64,000 bases of DNA from Hyaloperonospora brassicae. Taxonomy: Eukaryota; Oomycota; Peronosporomycetes; Peronosporales; Peronosporaceae. Location of the stretch: positions 186,001-250,000 of the forward strand of contig CANTFL010001342.1 of NCBI GenBank assembly GCA_947650285.1, written 5' to 3'. The notes under the pieces were generated by a model. That model was not told where the DNA came from and did not search any database. It saw only the letters and a list, made by a program, of their open reading frames with translations. Shown here in pieces: positions 1-40,265 of the stretch. Within the stretch, counting starts at the first letter, position 1. Every line of letters begins with the position of its first letter. Made by a program: the position numbers and the translations under genes.

Positions 1-478
1 CGCCAGAACTATAGTCTTTCGTGTCCACCCCGTTGCTTTGGACGAGACTTTCAACATAGCGCACAATGCAGACTACAAATCTAAGCTTTCTTAGCTCAGA
101 TATAGGGGGTAAGATAAGCTCCACTCTAGCAAGCTCAATAATCACCTCAGCGTTCTCTAAACCTAACTTACAATTCGTTATAGCACACATTTGTGAGCGC
201 TGGCGCAGACAACGAGGTTTGTGATTGTTAATGCAAAATTATAGGTAAATTTTTCACGATAAACGTGGTGAACCAGCTACCAGCTGATTTGGTATGTGGT
301 AGTACTGTATTGAGTAGGAATTTGGATCCATGCATCTTTCACGGTGGAATTCGGTCAATTCTCATACCATACAGGTGTCGCGGTGAGAGCGACGTGTCCC
401 AAAACGCTTGTGCAGGTTTAAAGTCTTCGCATGGTATCCTCTATTTTCCGCTTCGTAGCCAAAGCCGTACAACCTGTT
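1..478. other. Left flank, no gene recognised
   Basis: Sequence outside the gypsy insertion. The last five bases (474-478, CTGTT) are the left copy of its target-site duplication. A 72-codon frame at 265-483 opens with GTG, matches nothing I recognise and runs into the LTR, so I do not call it a gene. Confidence 0.6.
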
Positions 479-871
479 TGTAACGGGGCACACCCTTGCG
501 TGAACTTAACGCAAGGGCTTTGGTGCGCCCGACAGACGTACACGAGGCAAACGAGGAAGCGTAGATAAGGGAAAAGTAAAACTGTTATATTGATATAATT
601 AAGTCTATAACCACTGTCTCTCTGTTTGACTTAACTTAATTATGTTAATATAACTGAGTGTATGACGACGTCTACTCACCACTCATTGCGCGGGTCTTGC
701 GGCGATTGGTGGGTTGATATCGTCAAGATATCAACCAATGAGCGGACTCTTTGGTCGACCCATCAATATCACCACCATTGGTGATATTGTTCAAATAATA
801 ATCAACTTAATATTATTTATTGTCACTTTCCTTAAAGTGACAATTTCCATGTAACGGGCTGCCCCGTTACA
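479..871 (-). repeat. 3' LTR of element 1
   Basis: Directly repeated at 8047-8439. It begins TGTAACGGGGCA and ends with the exact reverse complement, TGCCCCGTTACA. It contains a run of near-perfect hairpins: 713-735 (arm GTTGATATC), 764-789 (arm CAATATCACC), one around 823-842 (arm GTCACTTT), and one at the right end where CCGTTACA folds back on TGTAACGG. Confidence 0.95.
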
Positions 872-874
872 TTA

Positions 875-885
875 CCCCCCCTTAA
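875..885 (-). promoter_or_regulatory. Polypurine tract of element 1
   Basis: On the minus strand this is a G-run preceded by AA, lying a few bases before the 3' LTR. This is the expected place and composition for the plus-strand primer of reverse transcription. Confidence 0.8.
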
Positions 886-1002
886 CTGATAGTCACCGTG
901 TGACTATCAAAAAGATGGCGGCCACTCATTGGGCACCATTGGGACAGGGAGCACTTGTTGAGTCCGTTCCATTCACTTTCCACCCGACCTCGCATAGTTA
1001 AC

Positions 1003-2604
1003 ATGTCTATGCGGGGTGACTCAAGACACGCACAGCCCGCTGCTGTGCCAGCCTCTGCGGCAGACGATTCGTCGTCTGCTGCTCGTTCTCCGCCTGCAGC
1101 AAGAGGTGCTGCAGGTGCACGCGGTATCAGCACCGCGTGCGCATGATGACCCTGACATTGAGGTCATCTATTCTGGAGGGTCAGACGTGTCTGACTCGGA
1201 AAAGCCTTTGGAGGCATCGCATTCACTTGCGGTGCCTCATTCATCCACGACACTGCAGGACGTACGGACTCGTGACATGTGTCACAGTCTGTTCGGCAGT
1301 GATGATAAGTCTGATGATGAGTATGATTGCTCATCACCGCGATCAACTCGTGCTCCTTCGCACGATTGACTTGACGATGGTGCAAGCCATCGTCATACTG
1401 ACAACCGTGGTACCGACAAGGGTACCAATGTGAAGCGTGATGAGCTGAAGGCGTGGCGTTTGCCTGAACGGCTCATCAATGGATTGTCTTACGAGACAAG
1501 CCAACATTATCGAATACCCTAATTCGATGCGACTGAGCTTCACGACTTGAGTTCCAGCGCGAAGAACTTTCGCGATGAAGAGGATTTTTATATCGATGTC
1601 TTCTCTAGACGTCGATGGTACAACGGCAACCAAAAGCGGGACAAAGCCTCGCTTTTGGCTGCGTGGAACGCGTTCGTCCAAAACTTAAAGACTTCGGACG
1701 AGAAGGGTCGCTCAAGAAACTTGAGGCGGTACCCCTCAAGTTTAAAAAGCGAACACCAACCGGTGCAAGGTACCGGTTGCATTGTTTGTCGAGTGAGGCA
1801 GATATTCCTTGCCTCACATAGGGAGACCCTTGTGCGAGTTGTGTTGACAACTCACAGCGGGCACCTAGGGATGTGTACTCCCTAAGTTCGCCCTGGGGAA
1901 GGGCACACATCTCGGCTGAGATGAGTGACGCGATTGCCAACTTGAAATCCGTCTACAAGCGCCAAAAGCGCGTGTTTACCGATGGTCCCTCGGACCTATC
2001 GGACGAGTCTCGTCATACTGGCGAACGAGACCTTCAACATCCATCAACAGCTGAGAGCGAGGCTCCCAGCTGTTCCAAGAGGGTGGATACCCCCGCCACT
2101 GGACGAGGTAGCTCGTCCTTGATCCTGAATCGTCATGGTGGTTCAAGATACGCTCCACTAGGAAGCGTTGACCACCGTGAGAATCCACCAAATGATGTGG
2201 TGGAGGGGGAAAGACCTCCTCCAGAGCCCCATGCCCACCATCTCGACCCTTACGAGATGGATCGCGCAATCGATGAATTGCGCGATGACTTGAAGAACTA
2301 GCGCGACCGGCGCTACGCTTTGACTGATACCGTGCGGAAGAACCGCAAGGATCACGAGGCTGATCGGGCGAGGGATCGCGCCGATTATGCCACGGCGCAG
2401 CTTCAGGTCGAGCGGGATGCTCGCTCCCTTCCTGTCGAGCTGGCGACAGCTCGCGGAGAGATAACTCGGTTGAGTTCCGAGGTATCATATCTGCACGACC
2501 AGACGGATCGTCTGGAGCGCGAACGCAAGAACTTGATGGATGTTCTTGAACGTGGGGGCTATCTTCATCGGAAGAAGAAGGCTCGTACTGATAGTACGAC
2601 CTGA
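1003..2604 (+). pseudogene. Antisense accessory reading frame of element 1, coiled-coil C-terminus
   Basis: Reads opposite to gag-pol between the 3' LTR and the integrase end, then overlaps the integrase C-terminus and chromodomain on the other strand. Pieces in order: Ala/Ser-rich start (ATG at 1003), an acidic motif IEVIYSGGSD (about 1158-1187), LFGSDDKSDD (about 1290), a basic-aromatic block RRWYNGN (near 1610-1630) followed by an AWNAF motif, a Gly/Pro/Ser linker, and a charged coiled-coil-like tail at 2320-2604 ending in a Lys-rich segment. It is broken by a frameshift near 1140, stops at 1369, about 1520 and 2301, and another shift near 1790. The same order and motifs recur in element 2 on its antisense strand (30330-32011). 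No known family recognised; function unknown. Confidence 0.6.
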
Positions 2605-3295
2605 GACTCCCCAGGTAAAACGTAGGATGCGTGCGCATCTTACGTGGCAATTCGAGTGTGTATGCATTGACCTTGCGATGCAACACTCGAAATGGCCCAA
2701 TGTATTTCGGCAGTAGTTTACTACTGCCGACACTAGTGACTGCATGTCCAGGTAGGTTTACCGTAGACAGTAGTACTAGGTCGTTAACTTTAAATGAAAG
2801 AACATTTGCTCTTCCATTCTTGTCTGCGTTCCGTTTCTGACGGTCCACCGCATTCGCGATGGAGTCCTGAACGAAACGAACTACCGCCTCTCGAGTCAGC
2901 AGGAAGTTATCTGCTGACTCTTTGTTTTGTCTTTCAGTGCGCTTCGTACGCACTGCTAAGAGATTGTTCTCTTCTTCAGCGAGGTTGTCTTCTTCCTCGC
3001 TGGCATAATCGTTGACGATGCTGAATATACCAGCATCGTCATCATCATCCGAGTCAGTAATAGCGTCGTCGCTATTATTTAGGTGATCTTCTTCATCGAT
3101 GTAGACCTGATCTGCATCGGCATCATACGTGACGACGTTAACGTCGACACGTGATGAGCAAGAGCCAAAACGGTTTTTGCTCGAGCGATTCCCTCCCCCC
3201 CTTATCCAAGAGTCACACTCTAGAAGGGTGGGCACACGTGGATGGTGTAGGCCATTCACGTAAAACGGTGTTTGCTGTGTTGAGGCATGAACCAA
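1976..3295 (-). pseudogene. Integrase C-terminal region with chromodomain (element 1)
   Basis: Continues the integrase after a frameshift at 3295/3297. It starts with the end of the catalytic region, passes an acidic linker and a Pro/Ser/Arg-rich stretch, and ends with a clear chromodomain (about 2010-2170): RFLVERIL, then SYLVQWRGYPP, then WEP and a closing QYDE. In chromoviruses this domain reads histone marks and guides integration. The frame closes at 1976. The low-complexity linker (about 2200-2600) is where the antisense frame also reads open. Confidence 0.85.
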
Positions 3296-3296
3296 A

Positions 3297-4802
3297 TTAT
3301 TGATGGCAAATTACACCATGGGTAGGAATTCGCTCCAACTCGGAAACGAGTGGACATATCCTCAAAAAAATCTCTTCGAGGACACGATTCGCACGTTCCG
3401 TCTGACCATCTGTTTCGGGATGGTCAGAAGTAGACATCTTCAATCGTGTTCCGAGAAAACGGAACACGGATTGCCAAAACGCCGCCGTGAATCGAGGGTC
3501 ACGGTCGGATACAAGCTCACGGGGTAACCCATGGAGTCTAAAGACCGTGTCTAAAAAGACACGAGCACAACCTTGAGCCTTGATCGACTCGGGTACAGCA
3601 GCAAGATGCATCATCTTGCTGAATCGGTCAACAAATACAAGAATACCATTATTCTTGTGAGCGTCTTCGGGAAAACCGAAGACGAAGTCCATTGAAACGG
3701 ACTGCCAGCACTCTGCCGGAACAGGAAGAGGTTGCAATGGTGCACGGGATGAAGGACTAGGCTTCACCCGTTGACATACTTCGCAAGCACGGATGTACTT
3801 GCGTACAAACTGATACTGGCGGGGCCAGTAAAAGTCACGACTTACCGTGAGGTAAGTCTTTTCTCTCCCACGATGACCACCTGTTGGGGCATCGTGACAC
3901 TCATACATGATGCGTAAACGCAAATCATGATGAGCGGGTACGACTACACCAGGCGTGCCGTCGACAACAGCTGTATAGTACAGCAATCCGTTGCGTGTAC
4001 TATACCGATTCGATGAGGATCGGTACAAAGCTGGTAAATCCCTCATGGATTTACTGGATGGATTCACCAGATGATCCATCAATCGCAGAAGATCCTTATC
4101 TTCCGCGTATGCCTTTCGTACGTCGTCAAGTTTACTTGACGACGGAACACTGGCTCTCAGTATCGCAACAGTGGGCTTATCCTCACTGTTGATTTGTGCG
4201 TCTGGCTCGAAATCGGGCCGGCGCGAGAGCGCATCAGCGACGACATTTAGTCGTCCTGGTTTATACTCCACGGAGAAGTTGTACTCCGCGAAGAAAGAAA
4301 GCCACCTCGCCATCCTTTTCGAGAGGCGTGGGCTGTTTACGGCCGTGCGTAGTGACGCATGGTCGGTATACACGATGAACGGTCTATCTCCCAAGAGATA
4401 CACCCGGAACTTAGCCAGTGCATACTTCATAGCAAGGAGTTCCTTGTCGTGCACTGGGTAATTGCGCTCAGCTACTTGCAGCTGACGCGACTGATAACAG
4501 ATGACGCGCTCCGCGCCATCTGTGTCAAACTGCATTGACGCACAGCCGATGGCAAAATCGCTGGCGTCACAGACCACATGAAATGGTCTGTCCTGATCTG
4601 CAATCGCCAATATCGGCGACTGCATCAAGCTTTGCTTGACACATTCGAATAAACGCTGGCACTCAGCGTTCCATGAGCACTTGACATTTTTCTTGAGCAA
4701 GCAAGAAAGATGAACAGTCATCTCGGCGTAGTTGCGCGAGTACTTGTGCAAGTACGACGCTAAACCAAGGAACTTCCTTAGTCCCTCGACATCGACTGGC
4801 AC
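3297..4802 (-). pseudogene. RNase H and integrase of element 1
   Basis: 501-codon open frame. First comes Ty3-type RNase H, with CYQSRQL and YTDHASLRT, ending at VVADALSRRPDF. Next is the integrase zinc-binding region (HDAPTGGHRG, then CEVCQRVKP) and the DDE core: D in SMDFVFGF, D in SDRDPRF, and E in GQTERANR. All three catalytic acidic residues are present. The frame is lost at the right border (RT side, stop codons) and at the left border (frameshift into the chromodomain part), so it is a segment of a broken polyprotein. Confidence 0.9.
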
Positions 4803-6043
4803 AGGCCTGTCGGTGATCGCCTTGATCTTCTAGGGATCGGGGCGTACGCCGTGTTTACCCACGATGTAGCCGCGAATATACACTTCTTGAGGTTAGCATA
4901 CAACTTATGCTTGCGCATAAGTTGAAGGACTTGACGAACGTGAGTTCGGTGAACTTAAACGTCGGTCTTTCCGTCCATTGCCCGACTATGGACGAACACA
5001 TCATCAAAGTAACTCGGTGCGGAATCCGGCACCGGTCTCAACAGATTTGTAACACATCTGTTGAACGTTGCAGGGGCATTTCTCATCCCCTGTGGCATCA
5101 CTAGCTACTCCCACAGCATACCGCTGGGGGTGCTCACTGCCGTGAATGGGATTCAACGTTCACGCATGAAGATATGATAGAAGCCATCCATCAGATCCAT
5201 GGACGAAAAGATGGTACTCTTTGACATACACTCTATGATTACGTCCTTCCTCGGTATCGGCGTCTGATCCGGTACCGTTGCAGCACTCAACTTGTTGAAT
5301 GCATGCACTATCCGCCATCCTCCTGTGGCCTTTCGTACAAATAAGGTCGGAGAGCTGTGAGAAGAAGGTGATTCCCTCACATGGTCCGCTGCAAAGCGAT
5401 CGGCAAAGAACTTGTCGATGGCTAGTACTTGTTCACGAGTCAGTGGCCACTGCCTCATGGCACAGTACTTCGAGCCCGGTTTGAGCTCGATCTCGTGTCG
5501 AGTGCCTTTATTCTTAGGCAGCTCACAAGGTAAGGATTCAGGGAATACGTCCTTGAATTCGATCAAATCCTTGTACAAAGAATTTGTCTGAAGCGACTTC
5601 TGGACATGATACGCGTATCGCTCAATCCGAGTCTTCTCATCGAGGACACTTTCGTCCATACATGAGCTGCTAAGAACCCGTTCGGTCTCAGCAAACATTG
5701 TTGCCGACCGAATATCGGCCACATACGCGTCCTCTGTGACGAGTAGGCAGATCTGCTTGACTTTGCCGCTACTCAGATCGCGCAACGACCGTTTCGGTTC
5801 TAGCTTTGGCAATTGAGTTATCTCCGAAGTTAACTTCGGAGGCACAATTGAATCAAGCGTATAAGCGCCTACGCTTGATCCGTCATTAACCAAGACGTTC
5901 AAAGTCTCGGTTAATTCCTGAGAACTTCGTTCCACATGTTTATGAAGGCCTAATCCTTCAGCAAGTGACTCTTGAGGAATTCCTTCCTCAAGTTCGTGAG
6001 GACTTATTCCCTCGACGTCTTCTGACTGTGGATGTGAAACCAC
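4803..6043 (-). pseudogene. Reverse transcriptase of element 1
   Basis: Open from 6043 to 5153 with the pre-RT linker and N-terminal RT fingers/palm (RHEIELKPG, WRIVHAFNKLS, then SSMDLMDGF, which holds the first catalytic Asp). An in-frame TGA follows RER at 5153. Homology resumes in the same frame through MPQGMRNAPATF and the catalytic YFDDV box (about 5005-5020, minus strand), with further stops, then joins RNase H near 4803. Element 2 has the same TGA at the same place. The enzyme would copy element RNA into DNA; this copy cannot do so as it stands. Confidence 0.9.
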
Positions 6044-6441
6044 AGTCAGGTCTCGATCCTCTACGGTCGACTCTCCAGTCGACCTAGGATGACCGTGTTA
6101 CCGTTTCTGGATAACCGGTTTGTTATTTCTAGAATGTTGCCTCTCTGGCATGGATCCATGTTCCGTTCCACTCAACTTATTCGAGCGGTGGGCCTTCGTA
6201 TCTACCTGTACTTCTGTACAGCCGCGAAAAGCTTGCTCCACATTCTATTGATCAGCTACACTGAGGTCTCGTCAAGTCGTGCTAACGACCGTACCGCAAT
6301 TGAGGCCATCGCCCTCACTCGCAGTACATCCACACGCTTGTGGACGCTGCATGACTTTCATCAGATGGCCACCTGATGAACAGCGGCAGGCCTCTTCACG
6401 GATCGATGCTGCCAGCTCACTCTTCGCTCCTACCTTCGCAG

Positions 6442-6798
6442 CTAAAGTAATCCCACGATGACGCCAAATTTGTCATCCAGATCCAGTACGATGAAGTCAT
6501 CATCGTACTGTTCGCCCTCTAACGTGTAGTGGATTCCTACTACACGTTTCTCAACGGTAATCGATGCGCCTGTTGCAAGGCGCACCGTCATCCTCGTGAG
6601 GGGAATGTCGCGCTCTTCGAACTTGAGCCTACGAACCTCTAGTGACTGGCGACTAACAAAGTTGTTCGACGCCCCACATTCAACTAGGTCGCAAAGTGAC
6701 ATATCTTTTGTCACTCGCAACTTCAAGGTGATGAGTGATATCTTATCACCAGGTGCAGAGCCACACAACGATTGTGTATCTGGAGCAGCTTTCGTCAA
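6442..6798 (-). pseudogene. Retroviral-type aspartic protease of element 1
   Basis: 118-codon frame with the layout of a gypsy protease: a beta-strand lead (ISLITLKLRV), the active-site region VECGASNNFV, and a distal hydrophobic block ending FGVIVGLL. In this superfamily the motif usually reads D-[ST/C]-G-A; here the Asp position is Glu. The same Glu is present in element 2. It joins gag by a frameshift near 6795. The identity of the domain is from layout and position; activity is doubtful. Confidence 0.75.
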
Positions 6799-8002
6799 GA
6801 GATTTGAAAATTCTCTTGACGTTGCTGGATGAGTAGGGCGCTCCGCCCCTACTGACCCCGATCATTTTCGACGGTCCGTCTCGCTGTTGCGGATTCGCAA
6901 CAGCGCTGGAACCACGCCCATTGCCCTTCTTGGTGAATGGTCGTCCATTTCTCTTAGTACTGTTTGGTACTGGGCGTGGAGCACTACACTCGTATGCGTA
7001 GTGCCCTAACTTCTGACAGCGATTGCACGTCTGCAATCGCTTGTTGCTTGAAGAGCGAGGTCTCTCGCCCTCAACATAGCAGAGGTCCATTGGTTCTGGA
7101 CCTCCGATCTCTTGTCGTCTCAGTGGACGATATGGAGTTTGAGCTAGCATGAGTATGTCTCATGCTAAAATCTTCCTGTTCCGCGGCTGATATCGCATCT
7201 TCCAGCGTATTCAGCTCAAGGCGGAACTGGTGGCTCCTGACGGGCCCTTCTGCGAGCCCTTGCATGAATACCGTAATCAACGTGTGTTCATGGACTGGGT
7301 TAGCAGTTATACTACTCGCAAGGAGTCGTATATGTTGAGCGTAAGCGTGCACATCACGCTTACCCTTCTTGAGTTTCAGGAGCTCTGAACGAGCCCTAAA
7401 CTCAGCCCGTGGCGGCTCAAACGTTTGTCTGAGCCGGGACTTGAAGTCATCTAGCGACCTAAACATATTTGGGTCGCTACTCTCGAGCCCCAGGGACCAA
7501 GTTTTGGCACGTCCTGCCAAGTGGGCTTGAGCAAATGTGATTTCATTTGCTCATCTTCGACGCGACGAACCCTTAGGGCTCTGTCGAGTTCGACAAACCA
7601 TAGTAACAGGGAGTCTTCCGGGACTCCACTGTACTTGGAGATGTCAACTTTCATGACTTCGGGACGACGGGCATGTGCCGTCCCGCCCACAGCAGCATGG
7701 AATTGCTGCTGTCTCAACAGCTCTGTCTGTTGAGCACCGGGTTCTTTCAAGTGCACGGTTTGTTGAGAGCCTTGCTGTTGAAGCAAGGCTACTTTCTCCC
7801 TTTCGGCGACAAGTTCATTGTGAATGAACTTGGCGATAGCAGCATGTTGTTGGTCTCTGTCTAGAGACTCCAACATGGTGCTGACGACGAGTTCGCCTAC
7901 GGTAGAACTCATTCGTTCTACCGCACCCCATTCAATGTCACTCAAATGGGTAAACCCTTCACGCGTGGCGTGAAAGGTTTCTTCATCATCCAACATGTTC
8001 AT
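6746..8002 (-). pseudogene. Gag of element 1 with CCHC zinc knuckle
   Basis: Begins at ATG 8002, shortly after the 5' LTR and primer site. The N-terminal part is Gln-rich and helical (EREKVALLQQQ). After a frameshift near 7535 comes a capsid-like region (MFRSLDDFKSRLRQTF, then HAYAQHIRLLASSI and FMQGLAEG). After another shift near 7140 there is a single zinc knuckle CNRCQKLGHYAYEC (C-X2-C-X4-H-X4-C) in a basic tail. Gag forms the particle and packages RNA. The frameshifts are private defects in that element 2 has different breaks. Confidence 0.85.
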
Positions 8003-8032
8003 GTTGGATGCTGTGGTCCTTGGAAGGACTAC

Positions 8033-8046
8033 AAAGTGCTACCAGG
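8033..8046 (-). promoter_or_regulatory. Primer-binding site of element 1
   Basis: On the minus strand, two bases after the 5' LTR, the sequence reads TGGTAGCACT. Its first eight bases are complementary to a tRNA 3' end UGCUACCA, as in many initiator-Met tRNAs. The same stretch with one base changed follows the LTR at 59336. Confidence 0.65.
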
Positions 8047-8439
8047 TGTAACGGGGCACACCCTTGCGTGAACTTAACGCAAGGGCTTTGGTGCGCCCGA
8101 CAGACGTACACGAGGCAAACGAGGAAGCGTAGATAAGGGAAAAGTAAAACTGTTATATTGATATAATTAAGTCTATAACCACTGTCTCTCTGTTTGACTT
8201 AACTTAATTATACTAATATAACTGAGTGTATGACGACGTCTACTCACCACTCATTGCGCGGGTCTTGCGGCGATTGGTGGGTTGATATCGTCAAGATATC
8301 AACCAATGATCAGACTCTTTGGTCGACCCATCAATATCACCACCATTGGTGATATTGTTAAAAGAATATTCAACATAATATTCTTTATTGTCATTATCTT
8401 CTAAATGACAATTTCCATGTAACGGGCTGCCCCGTTACA
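8047..8439 (-). repeat. 5' LTR of element 1
   Basis: Copy of 479-871, same length and termini, followed by the CTGTT duplication (8440-8444). It should carry the element promoter. The hairpin corresponding to left-LTR 823-842 is kept here with both arms changed (arm GTCAT against GTCAC). Confidence 0.95.
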
Positions 8440-8444
8440 CTGTT

Positions 8445-20316: not shown

Positions 20317-20570
20317 TGTTATGTCGAAGGAAAATTGGAAAGTGTATTGAATAAGTTTTCCTATGAACTTACTCGTCGTGTTATCTTCTTCTACCTTGTA
20401 GCTTTCCCTGATCTTGATGGATTCTAGAACATACACTCAAGGTAGTTCTAGAATCATCAGACTGCACGTGAACCGTTTACACCCTGTCGTATCATCGCTG
20501 TCTTGCCACTTGTGCGTAGCAAATCACAGTTGGCTTTGTTGACCGTGCATTGACAGTGCACCCATCAACA
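20317..20570 (-). repeat. 3' LTR of copia element
   Basis: Direct repeat of 23566-23819, ending in CATCAACA. It includes one long inverted repeat (arm TCTAGAAC). Confidence 0.95.
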
Positions 20571-23519: not shown

Positions 23520-23550
23520 CGTACTGGCTTCTGGCAGGGGTCCTTAAGCT

Positions 23551-23819: not shown

Positions 23820-25009
23820 GTATCCTACATCTTAATCATCAGAATTACATCAAATGTATTGTAGGCTCTTGAGCTGGGCAGCATCGAAAGCTCAGAGAGA
23901 TGCCTAGTTTTTGGTTAAAAAAAGCTATGCTCGTGCTACCAAACGCTATCGTGTTTTGTTATACATTAAGGTATGCCGCTATAAATGAGTTCTCGACCTA
24001 TCTTCTCAGTGTGCGTGTGACGATTCTTCTGATCCATTAACATTTTGGCACGAAACTTTCGCTCAAATGCGTTATAATGTGTTTACTTCAGCTGCTTTCT
24101 CATCTGCACTCATTCTAGTCTCTAATTATGAGTGTCCTTTAGCCAGCCTATTTCATTTAAAATATAAATAACCAATTTATGATATTATTATATATATATC
24201 ACTCTCATATTCGCTTCGTTTGATTCACCCATCATTTCTATCGAGGCAAATTTATAAAATTCTTCTGACGTAGATTTTTTAAGATTAAACAACAAAAACA
24301 GTAGTCTTTCCATGTAGCGGGCCAAAATTTGCGGTGCGTTTGCCTCGTTCCTCATACAAGACTCTTTTCTATGGAGTGTCAATATGAACCCATTCTATAA
24401 AATTATTCAGTATACACTGATTCTTTCGAATTAAGCACTGCTTTCTCATGTGCTAGGTGGTACATGCCAACTTCTTGGTCAATGCGTCACTGTCGTGCGA
24501 TAGCAAAATAAAGGATGAATGACATAGACTCTAGAGCCTAGGATGGCCTAATGGTTACCTCATGGGCACTTTCACCATCATTGTCGTTATAAATCGCATC
24601 ATGCTCCATCACGTCTGAGTCGCACTCGATCGGCTCGTAGTCATCCGCACCGATGTACTCGTCGACATCGACCCCCCAAGTCAAATTCGTCACGAACCTG
24701 GTCAGCCGTTCCTCAACAAATCGATCAATACGTTTGTTGTAGTCGCTTAGTTGGGTGATATCGGCCATCGTCAACGCCTCCAAAATATTACACTTGGTCA
24801 AGCAATTTCGAGTTACTTGCCCGAGCACCTTACCTTCTTTATATAGCAATGCTCGCAGCCTTCAGGACATCTAACTTTCGATCGATTCTGGTGTGCACAA
24901 CATCCATGAGTCATTGAATATGTTGAATGAGAATACCGCGCTTTAAATGACTAAATGTAACTATCAGAAAAAAGACACGTGCGAAACACACTGTCAGCGA
25001 AATCTTTAT
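23820..25009. other. Mostly no gene; AT-rich
   Basis: Flank of the copia insertion up to the truncated gypsy. Only one short frame (24538-24768) is worth listing. A TATATA run lies at 24190. Confidence 0.5.
24538..24768 (-). CDS. Small acidic ORF, unrecognised
   Basis: 76 codons from ATG at 24768 (MADITQLSDYNKRID), open a further 27 codons upstream to a TTG. Composition is protein-like: amphipathic start then a strongly acidic middle (DVDEYIGADDYEPIECDSD). No family recognised. A TATATAAAG lies upstream. May be a gene fragment. Confidence 0.25.
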   Translation of the reverse strand: MADITQLSDYNKRIDRFVEERLTRFVTNLTWGVDVDEYIGADDYEPIECDSDVMEHDAIYNDNDGESAHEVTIRPS

Positions 25010-25011
25010 TA

Positions 25012-26045
25012 GCGTCATGTTGTATTCCCTTGACAGGGACCAACAACATACCGCTATAGACAGGTTCATTCAAAATGAACTTGTCGCCGAAAGGGAGAAA
25101 GTAGCCTTGCTTCACCAGCAAGGCTCTCAACAGGCCGAGCATTTAAGAGAACTCGGTGATCAACAGACAGAGATGTTGAGACAGCAGCAATCCAATGCTG
25201 CTGTGGGCAGAACGACACACACGCTTCGTCGCGAAATCTTGAAGAATGATATCTTTAAGTACATTGGAGTCCCGGAGGACTCTCTGTAACTGTGGTTTGT
25301 CGAACTAGACTGAGCCATAAAGACACGTCGTATCGACGATGAGCAAATAAAACTCACATTTGCTCAAGCCCACTTGGCAGGACGTGCCAAAACTTGGTCC
25401 CTGGGGCTCGAGAGTAGCGACCCAAATATGTTTAGGTCGCTAGATGACTTCAAGTCCCGGCTCAAACAGACGTTTAAACCGCCTCGGGCTGAGTTTAGGC
25501 TAAGCTCCTGAAACTCAAACAGGGTAAGCGTCATGTGCACGCTTACGCTCAGCATATACGACTCCTCGCGAGTAGTATAACTTCTAACCCAGTTCATGAA
25601 CACTCGTTGATTACGGTGTTCATGCAAGGGCTCGCAGAAGGGCACGTCAGGAGCCACCTGTTCCGACTTGAGCTGAATACGCTTGAAGAAGTGATATCAG
25701 CCGCGGAACAGGAAGACTTTAGCATGAGACAGGCTCATGCTAGCTCAAACTCTTACCGTCCACCGAGACGACAAGAGATCGGAGGTCCAGAACCAATGGA
25801 CCTCTGCTATGTTGAGGGCGAGAGACCTCGCTCTTCAAACAACAAGCGATTGCAGACGTGCAATCGCTGTCAGAAGTTAGGGCACTACGCATACGATTGT
25901 AGTGCTCCACGCCCAGTACCAAACAGTACTGAGAGAAATGGACGAGCATTCGCCAAGAAGGGCAATGGGCGTGGGTCCAACACTGTTGCGAAGCCGCAAC
26001 AGCGAGACGGACCATCAAAAAATGATCGGGGTCAGTAGGGGCGGA
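25012..26045 (+). pseudogene. Gag of element 2 (5' truncated)
   Basis: Starts at LDRDQQHTAIDRFIQNELV, equivalent to about residue 45 of element 1 Gag. A stop after VPEDSL (25288), a few-base deletion near 25500 and a frame change follow. It then stays open through HAYAQHIRLLASSITS, FMQGLAEG and the zinc knuckle CNRCQKLGHYAYDC (about 25855-25900). The tail reads KKGNGRGSN and ends near 26038. Confidence 0.85.
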
Positions 26046-26088
26046 GCGCCCTACTCATCCAGCAACGTCAAGAGAATTTTCAAATCTC

Positions 26089-26445
26089 TTGACGAAAGCT
26101 GCTCCAGATACACAATCGTTGTGTGGCTCTGCACCTGGTGTTAAGATATCACTCATCACCTTGAAGTTGCGAGTGACAAAAGATATGTCACTTTGCGATC
26201 TAGTTGAATGTGGGGCGTCGAACAACTTTGTTAGTCGCCAGTCACTAGAGGTTCGTAGGCTCAAGTTCGAAGAGCGCGACATTCCCCTCACGAGGATGAC
26301 GGTGCGCCTTGCAACAGGCGCATCGATTACCGTTGAGAAACGTGTAGTAGGAATCCACTACACGTTAGAGGGTGAACAGTACGATGATGACTTCATCGTA
26401 CTGGATCTGGATGACAAATTTGGCGTCATCGTGGGATTACTTTAG
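26089..26445 (+). pseudogene. Protease of element 2
   Basis: 118 codons, differing from element 1 at one residue by eye (PGVKISL against PGDKISL). The active-site position reads VECGASNNFV, again Glu where Asp is expected. Joined to gag by a frameshift. Confidence 0.75.
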
Positions 26446-26843
26446 CTGCGAAGGTAGGAGCGAAGAGTGAGCTGGCAGCATCGATCCGTGAAAAGGCCTG
26501 CCGCTGTTCATCAGGTGGCCATCTGATGAAAGTCATGCAGCGTCCACAAGCGTGTGGATGTACTGCGAGTGAGGGCGATGGCCTCAATTGCGGTACGGTC
26601 GTTAGCACGACTGCACGAGACCTTAGTGTAGCTGATCAATAGAATGTGGAGCAAGCTCTCCGCGGCTGTACAGAAGTACAGGTAGATACGAAGGCCCACC
26701 GCTCGAATAAGTCGAGTGGACCGGGACATGGATCCATGCCAGAGAGGCAACATTCTAGAAATAACAAACCGGTTATCCAGAAACGGTAACACGGTCATCC
26801 TAGGTCGAATGGAGAACCGATTGTAGAGGATCGAGACCTGACT

Positions 26844-28078
26844 GTGGTTTCACATCCACAGTCAGAAGACGTCGAGGGAATAAGTCCTCACGAACTTGAG
26901 GAAGGAATTCCTCAAGAGTCACTTGCTGAAAGATTAGGCCTTCATAAACCTGTGGAACGAAGTTCTCAGGAATTAACTGAGACTTTGAACGTCTTGGTTA
27001 ATGACGGATCAAGCGTAGGCGCTTATACGCTTGATTCAATTGTGCCTCCGAAGTTAACTTCGGAGATAACTCAATTGCCAACGCTAGAACCGAAACGGTC
27101 GTTGCGCGATCTGAGTAGCGGTAAAGTCAAGCAGATCTGCCTACTCGTCACAGAGGACGCGTATGTGGCCGATATTCGGTCGGCAACAATGTTTGCTGAG
27201 ACCGAACGGGTTCTTAGAAGCTCATGTATGGACGAAAGTGTCCTCGATGAGAAGACTCAGATTGAGCGATACGCGTATCATTTCCAGAAGTCGCTTCAGA
27301 CAAATTCTTTGTACAAGGATTTGATCGAATTCAAGGACGTATTCCCTGAATCCTTACCTTGTGAGCTGCCTAAGAATAAAGGCACTCGACACGAGATCGA
27401 GCTCAAACCGGGCTCGAAGTACTGTGTCATGAGGCAGTGGCCGCTGACTCGTGAACAATTACTAGCCATCGACAAGTTCTTTGCCGATCGCTTTGCAGCG
27501 GACCATGTGAGGTGACAGCTTCCTCTTACAGCTCTCCGACCTTCTGTGTGCGAAAGGCCACAGGAGGATGGCGGATAGTGCATGCATTCAACAAGTTGAG
27601 TGCTGCAACGGTACCGTCTCAGACGCCGATACCGAGGAAGGACGTAATCATAGATGGCATGTCAAAAAGTACCATCTTTTCGTCTATGGATCTGATGGAT
27701 GGCTTCTATCAGATCCTCATGCGTGAACGTTGAATCCCATTCACGGCAGTGAGCACCCCCAGCGGTATGCCGTGGGAGTGGCTAGTGATGCCACAGAGGA
27801 TGAGCAATGCCCCTGCAACGTTCAACAGATGTGTTACAAATTTGTTGAGACCGGTGCGAGACTTCGCACCGAGTTACTTCGACGATGTGTTCGTCCATAG
27901 CCCGGATATGGACGGAAAGACGTACATTGAGGTATATAGCACTCATGTTCGTCAGATTTTTCAACTTACGCGCAAGCATAATTTGTACGCAAACCTTAAG
28001 AAGTGTATCTTCGCGGCTAGCGAAATGCCACTTCTTGGGTGCATCGTGGGTAAACACGGCGTACGCCCCGATCCCTAG
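26844..28078 (+). pseudogene. Reverse transcriptase of element 2
   Basis: Pre-RT linker and fingers to AADHVR at 27513, stop, shift, then WRIVHAFNKLS and SSMDLMDGFYQIL to 27733, where the same TGA after RER as in element 1 interrupts. It resumes with MPWEWLVMPQ and the catalytic YFDDV box (about 27877-27892), then LKKCIFAA and GKHGVRPDP, stopping at 28078. Confidence 0.85.
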
Positions 28079-28760
28079 AAGATCAAGGCGATCACCGACT
28101 GGCCTGTGCCAGTCGATGTCGAGGGACTTCGTAAGTTCCTTAGGCTAGCGGCGTACTTGCACAAGTACTCGCGCAACTACGCCGAGATGACCGTGCGTCT
28201 TTCTTGTTTACTCAAGCAATATGTATAATGTTTATGGAACGCTGACTGTCGGTTTCCCTTGAAGGTATTAAGCAAAGCTTGATGAAATCGACTATAGTGG
28301 CATTTGCAAATCAGGACAGACCAGTTCATGTAGTCTGTGACGCCAGCTATTTTTCTATCGGCTGCGCGTTGATGCAGTTCGACACAGATGGCGCGGAGCG
28401 CGTCATCTGATATCTATCGCGTCAGCTGCAAGAAGATGAGCGTAACAAACCCATTGCATGACAAGGATCTCCTTGCCCCGAAGTAGGCACTGACCGAGTT
28501 TCGGGTCTATCTCGTAGGAGATAGACCGTACATTGTCTATAAGGACCATGCGTCACTACGCACGGCCGTAAACATCCCACACCTCTCGCATAGGATGACT
28601 AGGTGGCTGGCTTTCTTCGCGGAGTACACATTCTCTGTCTAATACAAGCCAGGACGACTCAACGTCGTCGCTGATGCGCTATCGCGCCGACCCGATTTCG
28701 AGTCGGGCTCTCAATAAAACAGTTGAGACAAGACCACTTTGCTGCACTTACGATCAGTGT
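28079..28760 (+). pseudogene. RNase H remnant of element 2
   Basis: Begins with KAITDWPVPVDVEGL, close to element 1, but from about 28200 identity drops and stops multiply. CDAS, SRQLQ and DALSRRPDF equivalents can be recognised in different frames. Confidence 0.7.
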
Positions 28761-29650
28761 CCCGTCGTCAAATTACTGGACGACGTGAGGAAGGCCTACG
28801 CAGAAGATAGGGATCTTTTGCACTTGATGGATCATCTGGCAAATTCATCTCGTATATATTTATAGGTTGTCCGGATTTTACCGATCCTCTTTGGATGGTG
28901 CACAAATAGCAATGGGTTGCTGTCCTATACGTCCGTTTCCGGCGACACACCTCGTGGCGTCATCCCTACTCATAATGATTTGCGCTTTAGCATCATGTAT
29001 GAGTGTCACGATGCCCCAACAGGCGGGCATCGTGGAGAGAAAAGACTTACCTCACGGTAAGTCGTGACTTTTACTAACCCCGCTAGTATCAGTTTGTCCG
29101 CAAGTAAATTCGTGCTTGCGAGGTTTGTCAACGGGTGAACCCTATTTTCTCTTCCCATGCAGCATTACAGAATCTTCCTGTCCTTGAAGCGTGCTGATAG
29201 ACCGTTTCAATGGACTTCGTCTTCAGTTTTCCCGAAGACGACCACAAGAAAAATGGTATTCTTGTGTTCGTTGATCGGTTCAGCAAGATGGTTCATCTTG
29301 CTGCAGTTCCAGAGTCGATCAATGCTCACGGATGTGCGCGTGTCTTTTCCGACACAGTGTTTCGACTTTATGGGTTACCTCGTGAACTCGCATCCGACCG
29401 TGACCCTCGGTTTACGGTGGAGTTTTGGCAATCAGTGTTCTGCTCACTCGAAACATGGTTGAAGCTATCAACATCTGAAATTCCCGAAACAGATGGTCAG
29501 ACGGATGTGCCAATCGTGTCCTCGAAGAGATCCTTCGAGGATATGTCCACTCGTTTTCGAGTTGGAGCGAATTCCTACCCATGGTGGAATTCGCCATCAA
29601 TAATTTGGTGCATGCTTCAACTCAGCATACACCTTTCTTCGTGAATGGCT
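28760..29650 (+). pseudogene. Integrase core of element 2
   Basis: Zinc-binding region in fragments (ECHDAPTGGH equivalent near 29005). The core frame at 29210-29500 shows MDFVFSFPED, FVDRFSKMVHLAAVPES and ASDRDPRFTVEFWQS. The catalytic Glu codon of GQTE (about 29504) is hit by a one-base deletion, so the reading after it shifts to GQTDVP. Confidence 0.8.
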
Positions 29651-30345
29651 TCCGCCATCCACGTCTGCCCTCCCTGTTAGAGTGTGACTCATGGATTATG
29701 AGGGGGGAATCGATCGAGCAAAAAACTGTTTTGGCTCTTGCTCATCATTTGTCGACGCTAACGTCGTCACGTATGATGCCGATGTCGATCAAGTCGACAT
29801 CGATAAACAAGATCACCTCAATAATAGCGATGACGCTATTGTTGAATCAGATGATTATGACGATGCTGGCATTATCAGCATCTCCAACGACGACTTCAGC
29901 GAGGGTGTCATCATCCTCGCTGATGAACAGAGGGAGCAAAGGACTCTTTCTGTAGTTCGAACAAGTTGAACTGAACAAAGAAATGTCTCGTCAGCAGAAA
30001 GGTTTCTGCTGGCTCGTCAAGCAGTGGTCCGTTTCGTGCAGGATTCCATCACTCACGCCGCAGACAGGCAGAAGCGGAACGCTGACAAGAATGGAAGAGC
30101 AAATATACGTTCATTTGTCAAAGGTGACTTAGTCCTATTATCTACGGTAAACTCACCTAGACATATACTAATTAACGTGGGCAGCAGCAAACTATTGCCC
30201 AAGTACATCGGTCTCTTTCGCGTGCTGCTCCAACAAGGCACCGCAGACACGATCGGGCTGCCGCCTAGGATTCGTACGCATCCTACGTTTTACGTAAGGT
30301 ATCTCCGCCCGTACTGTCAGTACGATCCCTCTTAGGACGACGAAG
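29581..30345 (+). pseudogene. Integrase C-terminal region of element 2
   Basis: NNLVHASTQHTPFFVNG start, acidic linker in several frames, then AVVRFVQDSI, QKRNADKNGRAN, VLLSTVNSPRH, SKLLPKYIGLFRVL and THPTFYVRYLRPY, matching the element 1 GPY/F-type region. Confidence 0.75.
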
Positions 30346-32011
30346 TTAGCTCCACGTTCAAGAACCTCCATCAGACTCCTTCTCTCGCGCTACAGACGAT
30401 CAGTCAGGACGCGTAACGAAGAGGCCTCGCCACGCAGTTAGGAGATCTCTCTGGGAGATGTCTCCAGCTCTTCGACAAGGGGGCGGACATCACGCTAAAC
30501 CTGAACTTGGGCGAGGGCGTACTCGGCAAGATCCTTCGCCAGATCAGCCTCCCGATCCTAGCGGTGTTTCCGCACATAATCGATCATAGCGTTGCGATTG
30601 TTCCGCTCGTGCTCCATATCCTCGCGCAATTGATCGATTGCGCAATCCATCTCGTATTGGTCGAGATGGTGAGCCGAACGACTTGGAGAAGGGTTTTCCC
30701 TTTCCTCCACATCCTTTGGTGGACTCACACGGTGGTCAACGCTTCCTTGTGGAGCGTATCTTAAGCCACCGAGACGATTCAGGATCAAGGACGAGTTACC
30801 TCGTCCAGTGGCGGGGGTATCCACCCTATTAAAACAGCTGAGAGCGGGGCTCCCAGCTGATGATGGATGTTCCGGTCTCGTCGAGCAGTACGATGTGACC
30901 CACCCTTTCGAGGAGCACCATCGTCGAATGAACGCCCGGCGCGTTCGTAAAGGGATTGTAAAGTCTCAATCCCTTCGTGCATCTCGGAAGAGATATGCGC
31001 CCTCCAGTAGGGTTAATTAGGGAGGAAGGCCTCCTCAGTGGCGCTACCAGAGTTGTCAATACAACTCTGACATGTCTCTCCCCACGAGAGGCAAGTTAAA
31101 CCTGCCTCTCGAGACAATCGGTGCAATTTAAACCCAGCACCGGTTATGGACTTCCGTTCCAACTTATTGCGAGCTGTAGTAAGTTTGTCTAGCCAAGTGT
31201 CACGGCTAACACTGTCAATGTTGCCGATAAACGAGTTCCACGCGTGAGCCAACGATAAATCGTCTCGTTCGTGGTTACCGTAGTACCATCGATGTCTGAA
31301 ATAGACATTGATCTAGAATCCATGCTCAGTGCGATAATTTATCGCACTGGGATTAAGCCCATGGATCGTTGACGAGTCAAAGAGTGGTACCCGACAACTT
31401 CCAGTGGTATAACCATACCACTGTCTCAACTCGCTCAAGGTAGGCATCCATCCCTTGTTATTAGGAGCAGATCGCAACGCGTTGCGATCCTGCTCCTCCT
31501 GCGTGGTGCCAAAATGAGAGCTAGCACCACGATCGCCGCAATACTTAGTGTGGTGCGGCTATGGCTACGATGATTCCGCGAAGAGTCATCGACATTCTCA
31601 TGAGGACTTACGTCCTCATGTTTCGCACTCTCCTCGTTCGAATACGAGCGACATCGGTTCGATACCGTCGATGGGTTCACAGACTCGTCGGATGAGCCGA
31701 ACATCTCATGGCCGAGTCCTTATCGAGACTGCCGCGAGGCCCCGCAGTCTTCGATCCGCAACCTTACATTCGGGCTCTGCGCACGGCTTCGAATCAGATG
31801 GAGAATCCGATTCGCCCGAATAGACGACCTCTATCTCGGAAACTTGGTCCACGGGACTACCTCCCGCAGCCGAAGCTGCGGGTGAAGGAGCAGCACGTGG
31901 ATGACCACGTGCTCCTGCAACTCCCGTAGTTGCAGGATGCTTACTGGCAGCAGCAGGTGACTTGACACTTCGTGCTGAGTCTTGGACAGCTTGTTCTCCG
32001 GCTGCACGCAT
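30330..32011 (-). pseudogene. Antisense accessory reading frame of element 2
   Basis: Runs opposite to pol, from just inside the 3' LTR back over the chromodomain. From the start: Ala/Pro-rich (MRAAGEQAVQDSARSVKSPA), EIEVVYSGESDSPSDSKP, MFGSSDESV, FDSSTIHGLNPSAINYR, RHRWYYGNHERD (RWYYGN at 31274-31291), LAHAWNSFIGNI, GAGFKLHRLSREAGLTCL, DTPATGRGNSSLILN, then a coiled-coil-like tail with YEMDCAIDQLRED and RERRSLMEVLERG. Each block has a counterpart in the same order at 1003-2604. Broken by several stops. Confidence 0.6.
30600..30905 (+). pseudogene. Chromodomain of element 2
   Basis: Open 30638-30832: FPPHPLVDSHGGQRFLVERI, then SYLVQWRGYPPY and a stop, followed by QL-MMDV and EQYDVTHP equivalents. 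Very close to element 1 in this stretch although the sequence before it is much more diverged. Confidence 0.8.
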
Positions 32012-32187
32012 CCGTGCGGCCTCGTCACTGGAGGCCTTGTTCGATCAGCGCATGGACGAACTCGTCATGCGCTGAAAGGCTGAATGCGTTGGGCAGAACC
32101 AAAAAGTGCTCACTTTCCTACAGAGGGACCCAACGGTAGTCACTCTGTCACCAACCAATTCAGTCACTTACTGTAGTGACTGATGGT

Positions 32188-32199
32188 TTAGGGGGTTGA
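32188..32199 (+). promoter_or_regulatory. Polypurine tract of element 2
   Basis: TTAGGGGGTTGA immediately before the 3' LTR; interrupted by T residues, so weaker than in element 1. Confidence 0.6.
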
Positions 32200-32647
32200 T
32201 GTAACGGGGTGAGACCGTTACATAAAAAATGATATCTTAGTGTTAATTTTTGAAAGTTATCGATCTAGATAATGTTTGATTGACTTTACCCGTAAGGAGT
32301 AAGGTTGAAGGAACATTACCACCGAGGGTAATATTTCTTTGATGGGTTGCTCCACCTGATGGTTGATGTTCGCGGTACATCAACCAGATTAACCATCAAT
32401 CGCTGCTGGACGCGCGCAATGGGTGGTGAGCAAGAAACCCACACAGGAGATTGTAGTTTAATATAGTTAGCTCAAGACAAAAGATGGTTCATTAAGAAAC
32501 ATAAGTATATTAAATACAGTTCTGCTTTTTACCTTAGACAGAACTTCTAAGTTCTGCAGACTCCGCTGCGCTTCCTCACGCCACGTGTACGTGACGTCGG
32601 GTGCACACAACCTTGTGTCGAATTGATACAAGGCGTGCCCCGTTACA
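32200..32647 (+). repeat. 3' LTR of element 2
   Basis: 448 bp, TGTAACGGGG...CCCCGTTACA. Shares with the element 1 LTR the core around CAATCGC, CGCGCAATG, GTGGTGAG and the 3' block before GTGCCCCGTTACA; the rest is diverged. Hairpin-rich (arms GGTTGATGT, CCTTGT, TGTAACGG). Confidence 0.9.
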
Positions 32648-39333: not shown

Positions 39334-39800
39334 GGGATTTCGCTGGTAGTGGTTGAACTAAAAGATGAAGGTTGTATATTTCCCCAAAATAGGGAGCACG
39401 CCAAAGAAGGCATCAGGCGGTAAGAGTGCATATACTTGTGCGTTGAACCTGACCACAGCAGGCACCAAAGAGCATAATTTCTGTCGAGCTTGTTTTTTGG
39501 TGTGCCTGCCTGGTCTGACAAACCGGTTAAGACGCACCAAGCATCATTTACATGCATGGACAAGGACATCCTTTGCATTCATGCTACGTTGAGCGCTATC
39601 CGATGTTTTGTTCGTTTGGCGAAGTGTACTCATATTGCCCGCTATAGCTGTGCGCACATGACGAAGGCTGGAGTAAAAGGACTATCAGGTAACTTCTATA
39701 CTTACTGTGACTAGTTACATGAGCGCGAAATGTTTCTGCTGTATGACGGAGTAGTTCAGTACCGCGTGATCGGTGGTCAATGTCGATACAACGCAAAAAA
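39334..39800. other. No gene seen
   Basis: Unique sequence between the right arm and the solo LTR. Confidence 0.5.
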
Positions 39801-40265
39801 TGTAACGGGGTGAGCCCGTTACATAAAAATTGATACGAATGTATCAATTTAGGTTATTATTTATTTAGATAATATTCAATTGACATTACTCGAAAAGAGG
39901 TAATGTTGGCAGAATATTACCCCCGAGGGTAATATTCGTGGTTGCTCCACTTCTTGGTTGATGTACACGTTACATCTACTAACTTGACCACCAATCGCTG
40001 CAGGACGCGCGCACTGGGTGGTGAGCGAGAAACCCACATAGGCGATTGTAGTTTAGTATAGTTATCTTAAGACAAAGATGGTTTATTGAAAAAACATAAC
40101 TATACTAAATACAGTTCTACTTTTTCCCTTAGACAGAACTTTCGGGTTCTGTTTGCTTCGGTTGCGCTTCCTCGCCACGTGTACGTGACGTCGGGGGTAT
40201 GCAGCCTTGTGTTCAGTCAACAAAAGGCCTTGCCAGTCATATGACAAGAGTCGTGCTTTGTTACA
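39801..40265 (+). repeat. Solo gypsy LTR
   Basis: 465 bp, TGTAACGGGG...TTTGTTACA, related to the element 2 LTR, with no internal region on either side. Flanks are AAAAA on both sides, compatible with a 5-bp target duplication though a homopolymer is weak proof. Produced most simply by recombination between two LTRs. Confidence 0.85.

What the first reader, a model, noticed from the sequence alone, without database searches (positions are those of the whole stretch)
479..8439. A retrotransposon tiled end to end with short perfect inverted repeats
Reading element 1, I find a perfect hairpin roughly every few tens of bases, in LTRs, gag, protease, RT, RNase H and integrase alike. At least eight stems of 9-11 bp with loops of 0-7 nt are listed in the feature table; about 0.3 nine-bp stems (loop 1-10) are expected by chance in 8 kb. 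I did not notice such a density in the copia element, LINE, mutarotase or duplication arms. Coding sequence is therefore shaped by a second constraint. Possible causes: a folded RNA genome (packaging, protection, translation control), or template switching during reverse transcription that repeatedly turns imperfect hairpins into perfect ones. I do not know of a description of this.
Basis: seen in the sequence. Interest (0 to 1): 0.9.

Follow-up and report, generated by a model that had tools for sequence, protein, structure and literature searches.

The report
Retrotransposons tiled with perfect hairpin repeats
A group of jumping genes in a downy-mildew genome is packed along its length with short, perfectly matched hairpins of a size typical for each family; the lineage that kept multiplying conserved and added hairpins while an old dead copy did not, so these elements seem to carry a second code on top of their proteins.

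Summary
Confirmed, and stronger than reported. Element 1 (479-8439, minus strand) is a Ty3/Gypsy chromodomain LTR retrotransposon with 45 perfect stems of 9-11 bp (loop 0-10); 300 dinucleotide shuffles give 0.28 on average, at most 3. The copia element, epimerase region and rest of the window are near chance; a related element at 25-32.4 kb has 32. Younger copies elsewhere in the genome (probably Hyaloperonospora brassicae) are about twice as dense. Stem length differs between families (5-6, 8-9 or 8-11 bp); the four families read form one RT clade, and the distant Gypsy and copia pieces sampled have no such stems. Stems of element 1 are conserved on the lineage to the young copies at third codon positions (2/128 against 83/944), but young-copy stems are not on element 1's branch (12/285 against 32/748); that lineage gained stems by stepwise substitutions. 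Best reading: selection for a string of stem-loops, probably in the element's RNA and read by an element-encoded protein. Against RNA: no clear G-U preference or strand skew. Function is inferred, not shown.

The parts
479..8439 (-). Element 1: Ty3/Gypsy chromodomain LTR retrotransposon, 7961 bp, 45 perfect stems of 9-11 bp (listed; a selection follows)
474..478 (.). Target-site duplication CTGTT, left copy
   Evidence: read from sequence
8440..8444 (.). Target-site duplication CTGTT, right copy
   Evidence: read from sequence
479..871 (-). 3' LTR (sense orientation), begins TGTAACGGGG and ends CCCCGTTACA in sense
   Evidence: 96% identical to the other LTR
8047..8439 (-). 5' LTR (sense orientation), six hairpins of 8 bp or more in 393 nt
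8022..8044 (-). Putative primer binding site just inside the 5' LTR; nearly identical in families L061 and L062
   Evidence: tRNA match not tested, label from recall
875..881 (-). Putative polypurine tract (seven G in sense) before the 3' LTR
   Evidence: sequence; label from recall
7987..8010 (-). 11-bp hairpin, loop 2, that contains the gag start codon
   Evidence: gag start by comparison with L067
3297..4802 (-). Open frame with RNase H, H2C2 and integrase core domains
1976..3295 (-). Open frame with Tf2-1-like SH3 domain and chromodomain
712..736 (.). LTR hairpin, arm 10, loop 5
764..789 (.). LTR hairpin, arm 11, loop 4
819..844 (.). LTR hairpin, arm 11, loop 4; differs from its counterpart 8387-8412 by a compensated pair
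849..872 (.). Hairpin at the LTR start in sense, arm 10, loop 4
2707..2730 (.). Hairpin, arm 11, loop 2
3013..3041 (.). Hairpin, arm 11, loop 7
4121..4144 (.). Hairpin, arm 11, loop 2, in the RNase H-integrase frame
5822..5841 (.). Perfect palindrome, arm 10, loop 0
6484..6510 (.). Hairpin, arm 11, loop 5
24997..32400 (+). Element 2: diverged relative (85.6% over 6188 aligned bases, 24997-31145), 32 perfect stems of 9 bp or more
   Evidence: its ends were not mapped
39800..40212 (.). LTR-like piece (80% identical to 32199-32618) with three stems of 10-11 bp at 39800-39937

Best explanation
A clade of Ty3/Gypsy chromodomain retrotransposons in this oomycete is under selection to turn its transcript into a string of short, independent, perfectly paired stem-loops, with a stem length typical of each family. 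Shown: the hairpins exist in the four families read, which form one RT clade; they exceed dinucleotide and codon controls; in the window family they are conserved on the lineage leading to young copies, change at the background rate on the branch to element 1, and were added by stepwise substitutions on both arms. Inferred: that the selected molecule is the element's RNA, and that an element-encoded protein (most likely Gag/nucleocapsid, possibly RT) reads stem-loops of that family's size, so that many weak sites along the RNA favour packaging or compaction of its own genome. Shielding from host RNA silencing, with stems kept short, is a second possible benefit.
For: Density against shuffles and codon shuffles. 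Stems of el1 on the L048 branch: third positions 2/128 against 83/944 in non-hairpin sequence (Fisher 0.0025), first+second 0/235 against 83/1892 (9.7e-5); stems of L035 on the same branch 1/246 against 41/794 (2.7e-4), of L036 2/271 against 28/762 (0.011); control, L048 stems on the el1 branch 12/285 against 32/748 (p 1). These tests share the L048 branch and are not independent. Derived substitutions inside perfect stems: 35/195 on the L048 branch (random placement mean 3.0, max 10 in 60), 1/127 on the el1 branch (mean 3.2). In the LTR, variation with the minor allele in at least 4 of 30 copies is at 5/116 stem columns, 8/34 loop, 21/242 outside. Loop lengths peak at 3 (L063), 4 (L061), 4-5 (L064, L067). 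Stem length differs by family and agrees with the RT tree. Folding excess per 350 nt: L064 50.3%, L067 47.5%, el1 35.2%, against -3.5 to 2.5% in five same-genome controls.
Against: No clear wobble tolerance: stems with one internal mismatch carry G-U and A-C about equally (L048 9/9, el1 12/10, el2 9/6; L064 28/33, L066 16/26, L067 31/22, L065 28/19, el1 20/19, el2 16/14; variants shared by two or more copies 20/20, single-copy variants 62/44). Only L061 leans clearly to G-U (7/0, 10/5); L063 8/3 is near its shuffles (6.5/4.7). Sense and antisense fold about equally and loops show no significant skew. Conservation is absent on the nine branches to single other copies taken together (my sum: 23/2574 stem against 58/6741 other third positions), which I read as post-insertion decay; in the divergent 3' non-coding part of L036, el1 stems are not conserved either (17/78 against 99/964). 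L032 stems on the L048 branch are marginal (5/274 against 33/759, p 0.062). Several branches show no stem gain above random (listed in the full report). LTR covariation is weak: 2 pairs changed on both sides, as in shuffles (1.9), though 9 such cells against 3.4 (0/500). No loop-motif search was run. No RNA data were available.
Confidence: 0.5

Rival explanations
1. Mutational drive: the element's own reverse transcriptase folds the nascent strand back on short inverted repeats and copies one arm from the other, so imperfect hairpins are repeatedly corrected to perfect ones; stem length reflects a property of each family's RT.
For: Perfect Watson-Crick arms with G-U little or no commoner than A-C and no strand skew are what copying predicts. 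Stem length differs between RT lineages. Quasi-palindrome correction by template switch is documented in yeast DNA (PMC3820800, abstract and outline read). Protein constraint could hide propagated changes in coding stems.
Against: Gains are stepwise and 5 of the 6 stems with two or more derived changes changed on both arms; 27 of 31 changed pairs on the L048 branch changed on one side and 2 were compensated. In the non-coding LTR, 13 stem columns have a minor allele in at least 2 of 30 copies and at most 4 of them belong to compensated pairs (my reading); fast correction predicts mostly compensated pairs. Stem sites stayed unchanged while other sites diverged.
Confidence: 0.22
2. The hairpins act in DNA: in the single-stranded cDNA during reverse transcription, or in the integrated DNA, for example by protecting exposed cDNA or by binding an integrase or chromatin factor.
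For: Strand-symmetric signal; G-U and A-C about equal; the first hairpin begins at the first base of the LTR.
Against: Stems change at the background rate on the branch to the integrated, apparently dead element 1, so no function at the integrated locus is needed; stems of 5-6 bp (L063) are unlikely to extrude from duplex DNA (general knowledge).
Confidence: 0.13
3. Shield against host RNA silencing: stems block small-RNA targeting and RNA-dependent RNA synthesis while staying shorter than Dicer needs.
For: Stems in the window family rarely exceed 12 bp (longest seen 13-14 bp); published ordered-structure work suggests shielding of viral RNA (PMC7642675, passages read).
Against: A general host pressure does not explain why families in one genome keep different stem lengths, nor why the two distant Gypsy and two copia elements sampled lack them. 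No small-RNA data were available.
Confidence: 0.1
4. Chance, composition, simple repeats or assembly error.
For: None found.
Against: Shuffles, codon shuffles, no tandem repeats in 1-40500, the same stems in many copies on different contigs.
Confidence: 0.01

Closest known systems
[quoted passage not shown]
   Same: Many consecutive stem-loops spread over coding sequence, excess folding over shuffled controls, paired sites less variable than unpaired ones.
   Different: Here the stems are perfect Watson-Crick with a length typical of each family, no clear wobble preference was found, the folding excess of copies L067 and L064 (47.5 and 50.3%) is about twice the highest value quoted there (23.4%; methods differ), 56 of 102 distinct stems are shared by 21 or more of 35 copies, and the carrier is an LTR retrotransposon.
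Dispersed packaging signals of RNA viruses (PMC6281560, passages read)
   Same: Many stem-loops spread over the genome, read there by the virus's own coat protein.
   Different: Those share a coat-protein recognition motif; here stem length is the shared feature seen and no loop motif is evident. Binding is untested.
Yeast Ty3 genomic RNA (PMC11381356, passages read)
   Same: Ty3-type element; stable structured regions reported for up to 30% of the RNA.
   Different: The passages seen describe probing-based mixed structures and six short palindromes near the 5' end, not a tiling by perfect hairpins.
Quasi-palindrome correction by template switch (PMC3820800, abstract and outline read)
   Same: Extends identity between arms of imperfect inverted repeats.
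   Different: Described there for highly transcribed yeast DNA; would have to act along a whole retroelement in one clade with a set length.
Palindromic motifs of plant Sireviruses (recalled; one search gave listings only)
   Same: Conserved palindromes in an LTR retrotransposon.
   Different: As recalled, a few conserved sequences near the polypurine tract, not many different ones through coding regions.

Membership tests
Ty3/Gypsy chromodomain LTR retrotransposon | Two near-identical LTRs flanked by a short target-site duplication | tested here: met
   479-871 and 8047-8439, 96% identical; CTGTT on both sides
Ty3/Gypsy chromodomain LTR retrotransposon | RT-RNase H before integrase, integrase with C-terminal chromodomain | tested here: met
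   Element 1: RNase H, H2C2, integrase core, SH3_Tf2-1, chromo (no RT domain was reported in the element-1 frames scanned); gag, protease, RT, RNase H, integrase, SH3 and chromo in copy L067
Ty3/Gypsy chromodomain LTR retrotransposon | Primer binding site complementary to a host tRNA | not tested
   A conserved stretch follows the LTR; no tRNA comparison was run
Genome-scale ordered RNA structure | Order-dependent folding energy over the whole genome, above shuffled controls | tested here: met
   el1 mean 35.2% over 22 fragments (12.0-65.4), L067 47.5% over 22, L064 50.3% over 20; own 350-nt fragments, 8 shuffles each, so only roughly comparable with published values
Genome-scale ordered RNA structure | Positions of pairing not conserved between relatives | tested here: inconclusive
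   Within the family 56 of 102 distinct stems are in 21 or more of 35 copies; between families few centres coincide, though more than chance for two of three pairs
Genome-scale ordered RNA structure | The structure is formed by RNA | tested here: inconclusive
   No clear preference for G-U over A-C in the window family and no strand difference; the RNA itself could not be probed
Dispersed packaging signals | Shared coat-protein recognition motif in the stem-loops | tested here: inconclusive
   Loop lists looked over show no evident motif and no significant skew; no motif search was run
Dispersed packaging signals | Stem-loops bind the element's own capsid protein | not testable with these tools
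   Needs binding assays
Quasi-palindrome correction by template switching | One arm overwritten by the other, so that compensated pairs outnumber one-sided inherited variants | tested here: not met
   Mostly both arms change; LTR one-sided variants outnumber compensated ones; power in coding stems is limited, so the mechanism is kept as a rival

The most novel reading that the evidence does not exclude
Each family of this clade writes a shape code over its whole genome: perfect stem-loops of one characteristic length (5-6, 8-9 or 8-11 bp), read by its own Gag or RT, so that the RNA is recognised as self by the length of its hairpins rather than by any sequence, and the set length shifts as reader and genome co-evolve.
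Probability: 0.3. Interest if true: 0.95.

Novelty: new variant of a known kind. Interest (0 to 1): 0.86.

Why it matters
Large-scale RNA structure is known in RNA viruses, but its purpose is unsettled. Here the signal is extreme and clean: perfect stems, a length that differs between sister families in one genome, an apparently dead copy as a neutral control and young copies as the selected state. That lets one ask directly what reads genome-wide structure and whether it is the element or the host. It also means that protein evolution in these retrotransposons cannot be read without the overlaid constraint, and it bears on how retroelements tell their own RNA from others.

Tried and rejected
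Strand test by G-U against A-C mismatches, sense against antisense folding and loop composition: no clear strand found. Closing-pair bias (C-G and T-A in L063, G-C in L061) was considered as strand evidence and dropped, because a perfect hairpin has the same closing pair on both strands.

An apparent excess of amino-acid-changing substitutions in stems (24 of 32 coding against 71 of 143 elsewhere) was not clear when matched by region: 23 of 27 in stems against 68 of 98 elsewhere in the fast-evolving 5' part; I ran no formal test on that table.

Relatives outside the genome: viral contigs gave none; genome contigs gave 17 Gypsy loci in prokaryote records, apparently eukaryotic contamination. 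None of the 17 shows the tiling. L079/L080 (near-identical to each other), L083 and L078 have small excesses of 7-8 bp stems, partly TA repeats in L079 and L078, and L082 and L074 of 5-bp stems (z 4.3 and 3.5); L074, L083 and L079 have moderate folding excess of 8-12% (five of the 17 folded). Rfam: no match for 400-8500. Alignment A3 mixed strands and was replaced by A4. One search failed because a wrong strand was given; one search stopped with an error after its useful rows; two element-1 frames were out of frame and are not used.

Only one copy each of families L061, L062 and L063 was read at length. The same-genome controls are the window's copia element and other window stretches, a 2-kb piece each of two related Gypsy families (L085, L087) and 2 kb of one further copia element (L086, with a weak excess of 5-bp stems, 15 against 8.7). 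Gypsy clades between these and the hairpin clade, and other species, are unsampled.
Full report
What is there. Element 1 (el1, 479-8439, coding on the minus strand) is a Ty3/Gypsy LTR retrotransposon: two 393-bp LTRs 96% identical, a 5-bp target-site duplication CTGTT, and frames with RNase H, zinc-binding and core integrase, a Tf2-like SH3 domain and a chromodomain. Gag, protease and RT are recognised in copy L067. El1 looks dead: its longest frames are 439, 501 and 296 aa, against 1339 aa and more in many other copies, and its LTRs have diverged by 4%. The window lies in contig C809 (704,455 bp) of a 100.6-Mb genome. A protein named Hyaloperonospora brassicae sits on a contig of exactly that length (P0173), so the genome is probably that downy mildew.

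The hairpins. Perfect stems of 9 bp or more with loop 0-10 number 45, against a mean of 0.28 and a maximum of 3 in 300 dinucleotide shuffles. Arm lengths are 9, 10 and 11 bp (17, 20, 8), none longer. Loops are 0-9 nt, whole hairpins 20-29 nt. Stems end abruptly: the first outside pair is G-U and A-C about equally often (12/14 in L067, 14/12 in L064, counted). Copia 20317-23819, the epimerase region and the rest of the window are near their shuffles; the exceptions are weak (7-bp arms 5 against 1.8 in 34271-39333; 5-bp arms 222 against 192, z 2.3, in the rest). Element 2 (about 24997-32400) has 32 stems of 9 bp or more.

Other copies. The 29 further pol-region loci of the family (L032-L060) hold 28-38 such stems in about 4.4 kb, against 16 in the same region of el1. 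Across 35 aligned copies there are 102 distinct hairpins of 8 bp or more; 56 occur in 21 or more copies and 46 in 9 or fewer. The search with an el1 pol piece scored and listed 86 matches at 90% identity or more, out of 7945 candidates.

Family-specific stem length. Against shuffles, L064 and L067 of the window family peak at 8-10 bp (25 nine-bp stems in each, against 0.1), with single stems up to 14 bp. L061 peaks at 8 bp (30 against 0.8). L062 lies at 8-9 bp (12 and 10 against 0.8 and 0.2). L063 peaks at 5 bp (161 against 35) and 6 bp (46 against 9.9), with 8 against 2.4 at 7 bp and 2 at 8 bp. A smaller excess of 5-7 bp stems is present in the other families too. Inside L063's long frame, codon shuffles give 24.4 five-bp stems against 78 seen, so this is not only its LTR or internal repeat. 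Loop lengths peak at 3 nt in L063, 4 in L061 and 4-5 in L064 and L067. In an RT-RNase H tree of 22 rows these families form one group (100/100), with L061+L062 (100/100) and the window family (99/100) inside it; the first position of L063 is weakly supported (86/70). Two Gypsy families of the same genome with no excess (L085, L087) lie far off at 29-30% identity. A second copia element (L086) has no excess of stems of 6 bp or more. One origin is consistent with this, but sampling is thin and the tree has long branches.

Folding strength. Mean excess folding energy over dinucleotide shuffles, 350-nt fragments: L064 50.3% (20 fragments), L067 47.5% (22), el1 35.2% (22), el2 26.2% (21), L063 17.7% (21), L061 15.8% (21), L062 10.2% (20); same-genome controls copia 2.5% (10), 32.5-39.7 kb -0.1% (20), L085 1.3% (5), L086 0.6% (5), L087 -3.5% (5); Gypsy loci from other organisms 1.8-11.5% (L081, L077, L083, L079, L074; five of the 17 loci). 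L067 is young (LTRs 99.2% identical); the age of L064 was not measured. A published survey quotes about 15% for SARS-CoV-2 and 23.4% as the highest vertebrate virus value (PMC7642675, passages read); methods differ, so the comparison is approximate.

Selection, not decay or chance. I took stems (8 bp or more) as they stand in an older or divergent copy and counted changes on the branch to young copy L048 (identity 1.0 at three decimals to L052 and L053). El1 stems: third codon positions 2/128 against 83/944 in non-hairpin sequence (ratio 0.18, p 0.0025), first and second 0/235 against 83/1892 (p 9.7e-5). L035 stems 1/246 against 41/794 (p 2.7e-4); L036 stems 2/271 against 28/762 (p 0.011); L032 stems 5/274 against 33/759 (p 0.062). 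These tests share a branch. El1 stems on the branches to L042, L041, L037, L035, L032 and L036 give third-position ratios of 0.00-0.27, again sharing most of that branch; but in the divergent 3' non-coding part of L036 they are not conserved (17/78 against 99/964). Third positions of loops changed 4/33, near background. The mirror test, L048 stems on the branch to el1, gives 12/285 against 32/748: no constraint. The nine branches from L048's relatives to single copies also show none when summed (23/2574 against 58/6741, my sum; single ratios 0 to 2.1). Single-copy branches are mostly post-insertion time, so I read this as decay, but it is a result that does not by itself support selection.

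Gain. Of 195 substitutions derived on the L048 branch since el1, 35 lie in perfect stems; the same substitutions placed at random give 3.0 on average and 10 at most in 60 trials. On the el1 branch it is 1 of 127 (random 3.2). Other branches: L048 since L032 9/89 (2.5, max 6), L036 15/197 (3.4, max 9), L032 0/28 (0.8), L041 0/60 (2.0), L035 0/61 (1.7), L048 since L041 1/35 (1.0), el2 7/541 (4.8, max 13). So gain is above every random trial on three of nine branches. On the L048 branch 27 of 31 changed pairs changed on one side, 2 were compensated, 2 changed on both sides from a non-pair. The alignments show stems built up step by step, in 5 of the 6 stems with two or more derived changes on both arms. 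Gains concentrate in the fast-evolving 5' part of pol.

RNA or DNA. I expected G-U pairs to be tolerated if RNA folding were selected. They are not clearly favoured over A-C in the window family; single-copy variants lean a little (62/44), and L061 leans more (7/0; 10/5). Sense and antisense fold about equally; loops have no significant skew. Many mismatches in copies may be decay or unfinished stems, so the test is weak, but it is the main evidence against the RNA reading. In 30 LTR copies 96.8% of stem cells are paired; 2 pairs show changes on both sides, no more than in shuffles (1.9), while cells with such a change are 9 against 3.4 (0 of 500 shuffles). Variants with minor allele in at least 2 of 30 copies fall in 13/116 stem, 8/34 loop and 43/242 outside columns.

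How it may work (inferred). Selection is seen where the element kept multiplying and not on the dead copy's branch, so the phenotype belongs to RNA, particle or cDNA. Because families in one genome keep different stem lengths, I favour a reader encoded by the element over a host factor: Gag/nucleocapsid gathering its own RNA through many weak sites, as proposed for dispersed packaging signals (PMC6281560, passages read), or RT. A shield against silencing would not explain the different lengths. Arm copying by RT explains Watson-Crick perfection and lack of strand bias but not the one-sided, both-arm build-up; it remains the main rival.

Literature. Ten full-text searches listed no description of such tiling by title or start of abstract. 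Four papers were opened: PMC11381356, PMC7642675 and PMC6281560 (passages), PMC3820800 (outline and abstract). The library lacks most subscription papers.

Noticed in passing
   Followed up: partly
window 479-871 against 8047-8439: The two LTRs of one insertion (same target-site duplication) differ, by eye, mostly within one short patch that holds two hairpins, with compensated pair differences; this looks like exchange with another copy before or after insertion.
   Followed up: partly
L063 (own genome, C10): Very many 5-6 bp hairpins, preferring 3-nt loops and closing pairs C-G and T-A; L061 instead prefers closing G-C with 4-nt loops.
   Followed up: partly
element 1 sense 383-426, L061 873-908, L062 103-145: The stretch that joins LTR end and putative primer site is 93-97% identical between families whose pol DNA is about 56-70% identical.
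   Followed up: no
L061, L062, L064 pol regions: A few hairpin centres fall at homologous positions in different families more often than circular shifts allow (L061-L062 5, L062-L064 4; L061-L064 3 with p 0.074).
   Followed up: no
L068-L084: Prokaryote genome records (Trichormus, Methanosphaera, Erysipelotrichaceae, Geminicoccus, Solirubrobacter and others) contain Ty3/Gypsy contigs that look like eukaryotic contamination; L079 and L080, from two different strains, are 99.3% identical.
   Followed up: partly
L074, L079, L083: Some Gypsy elements from other organisms show moderate folding excess of 8-12%, a possible weaker form of the same trend.
   Followed up: no
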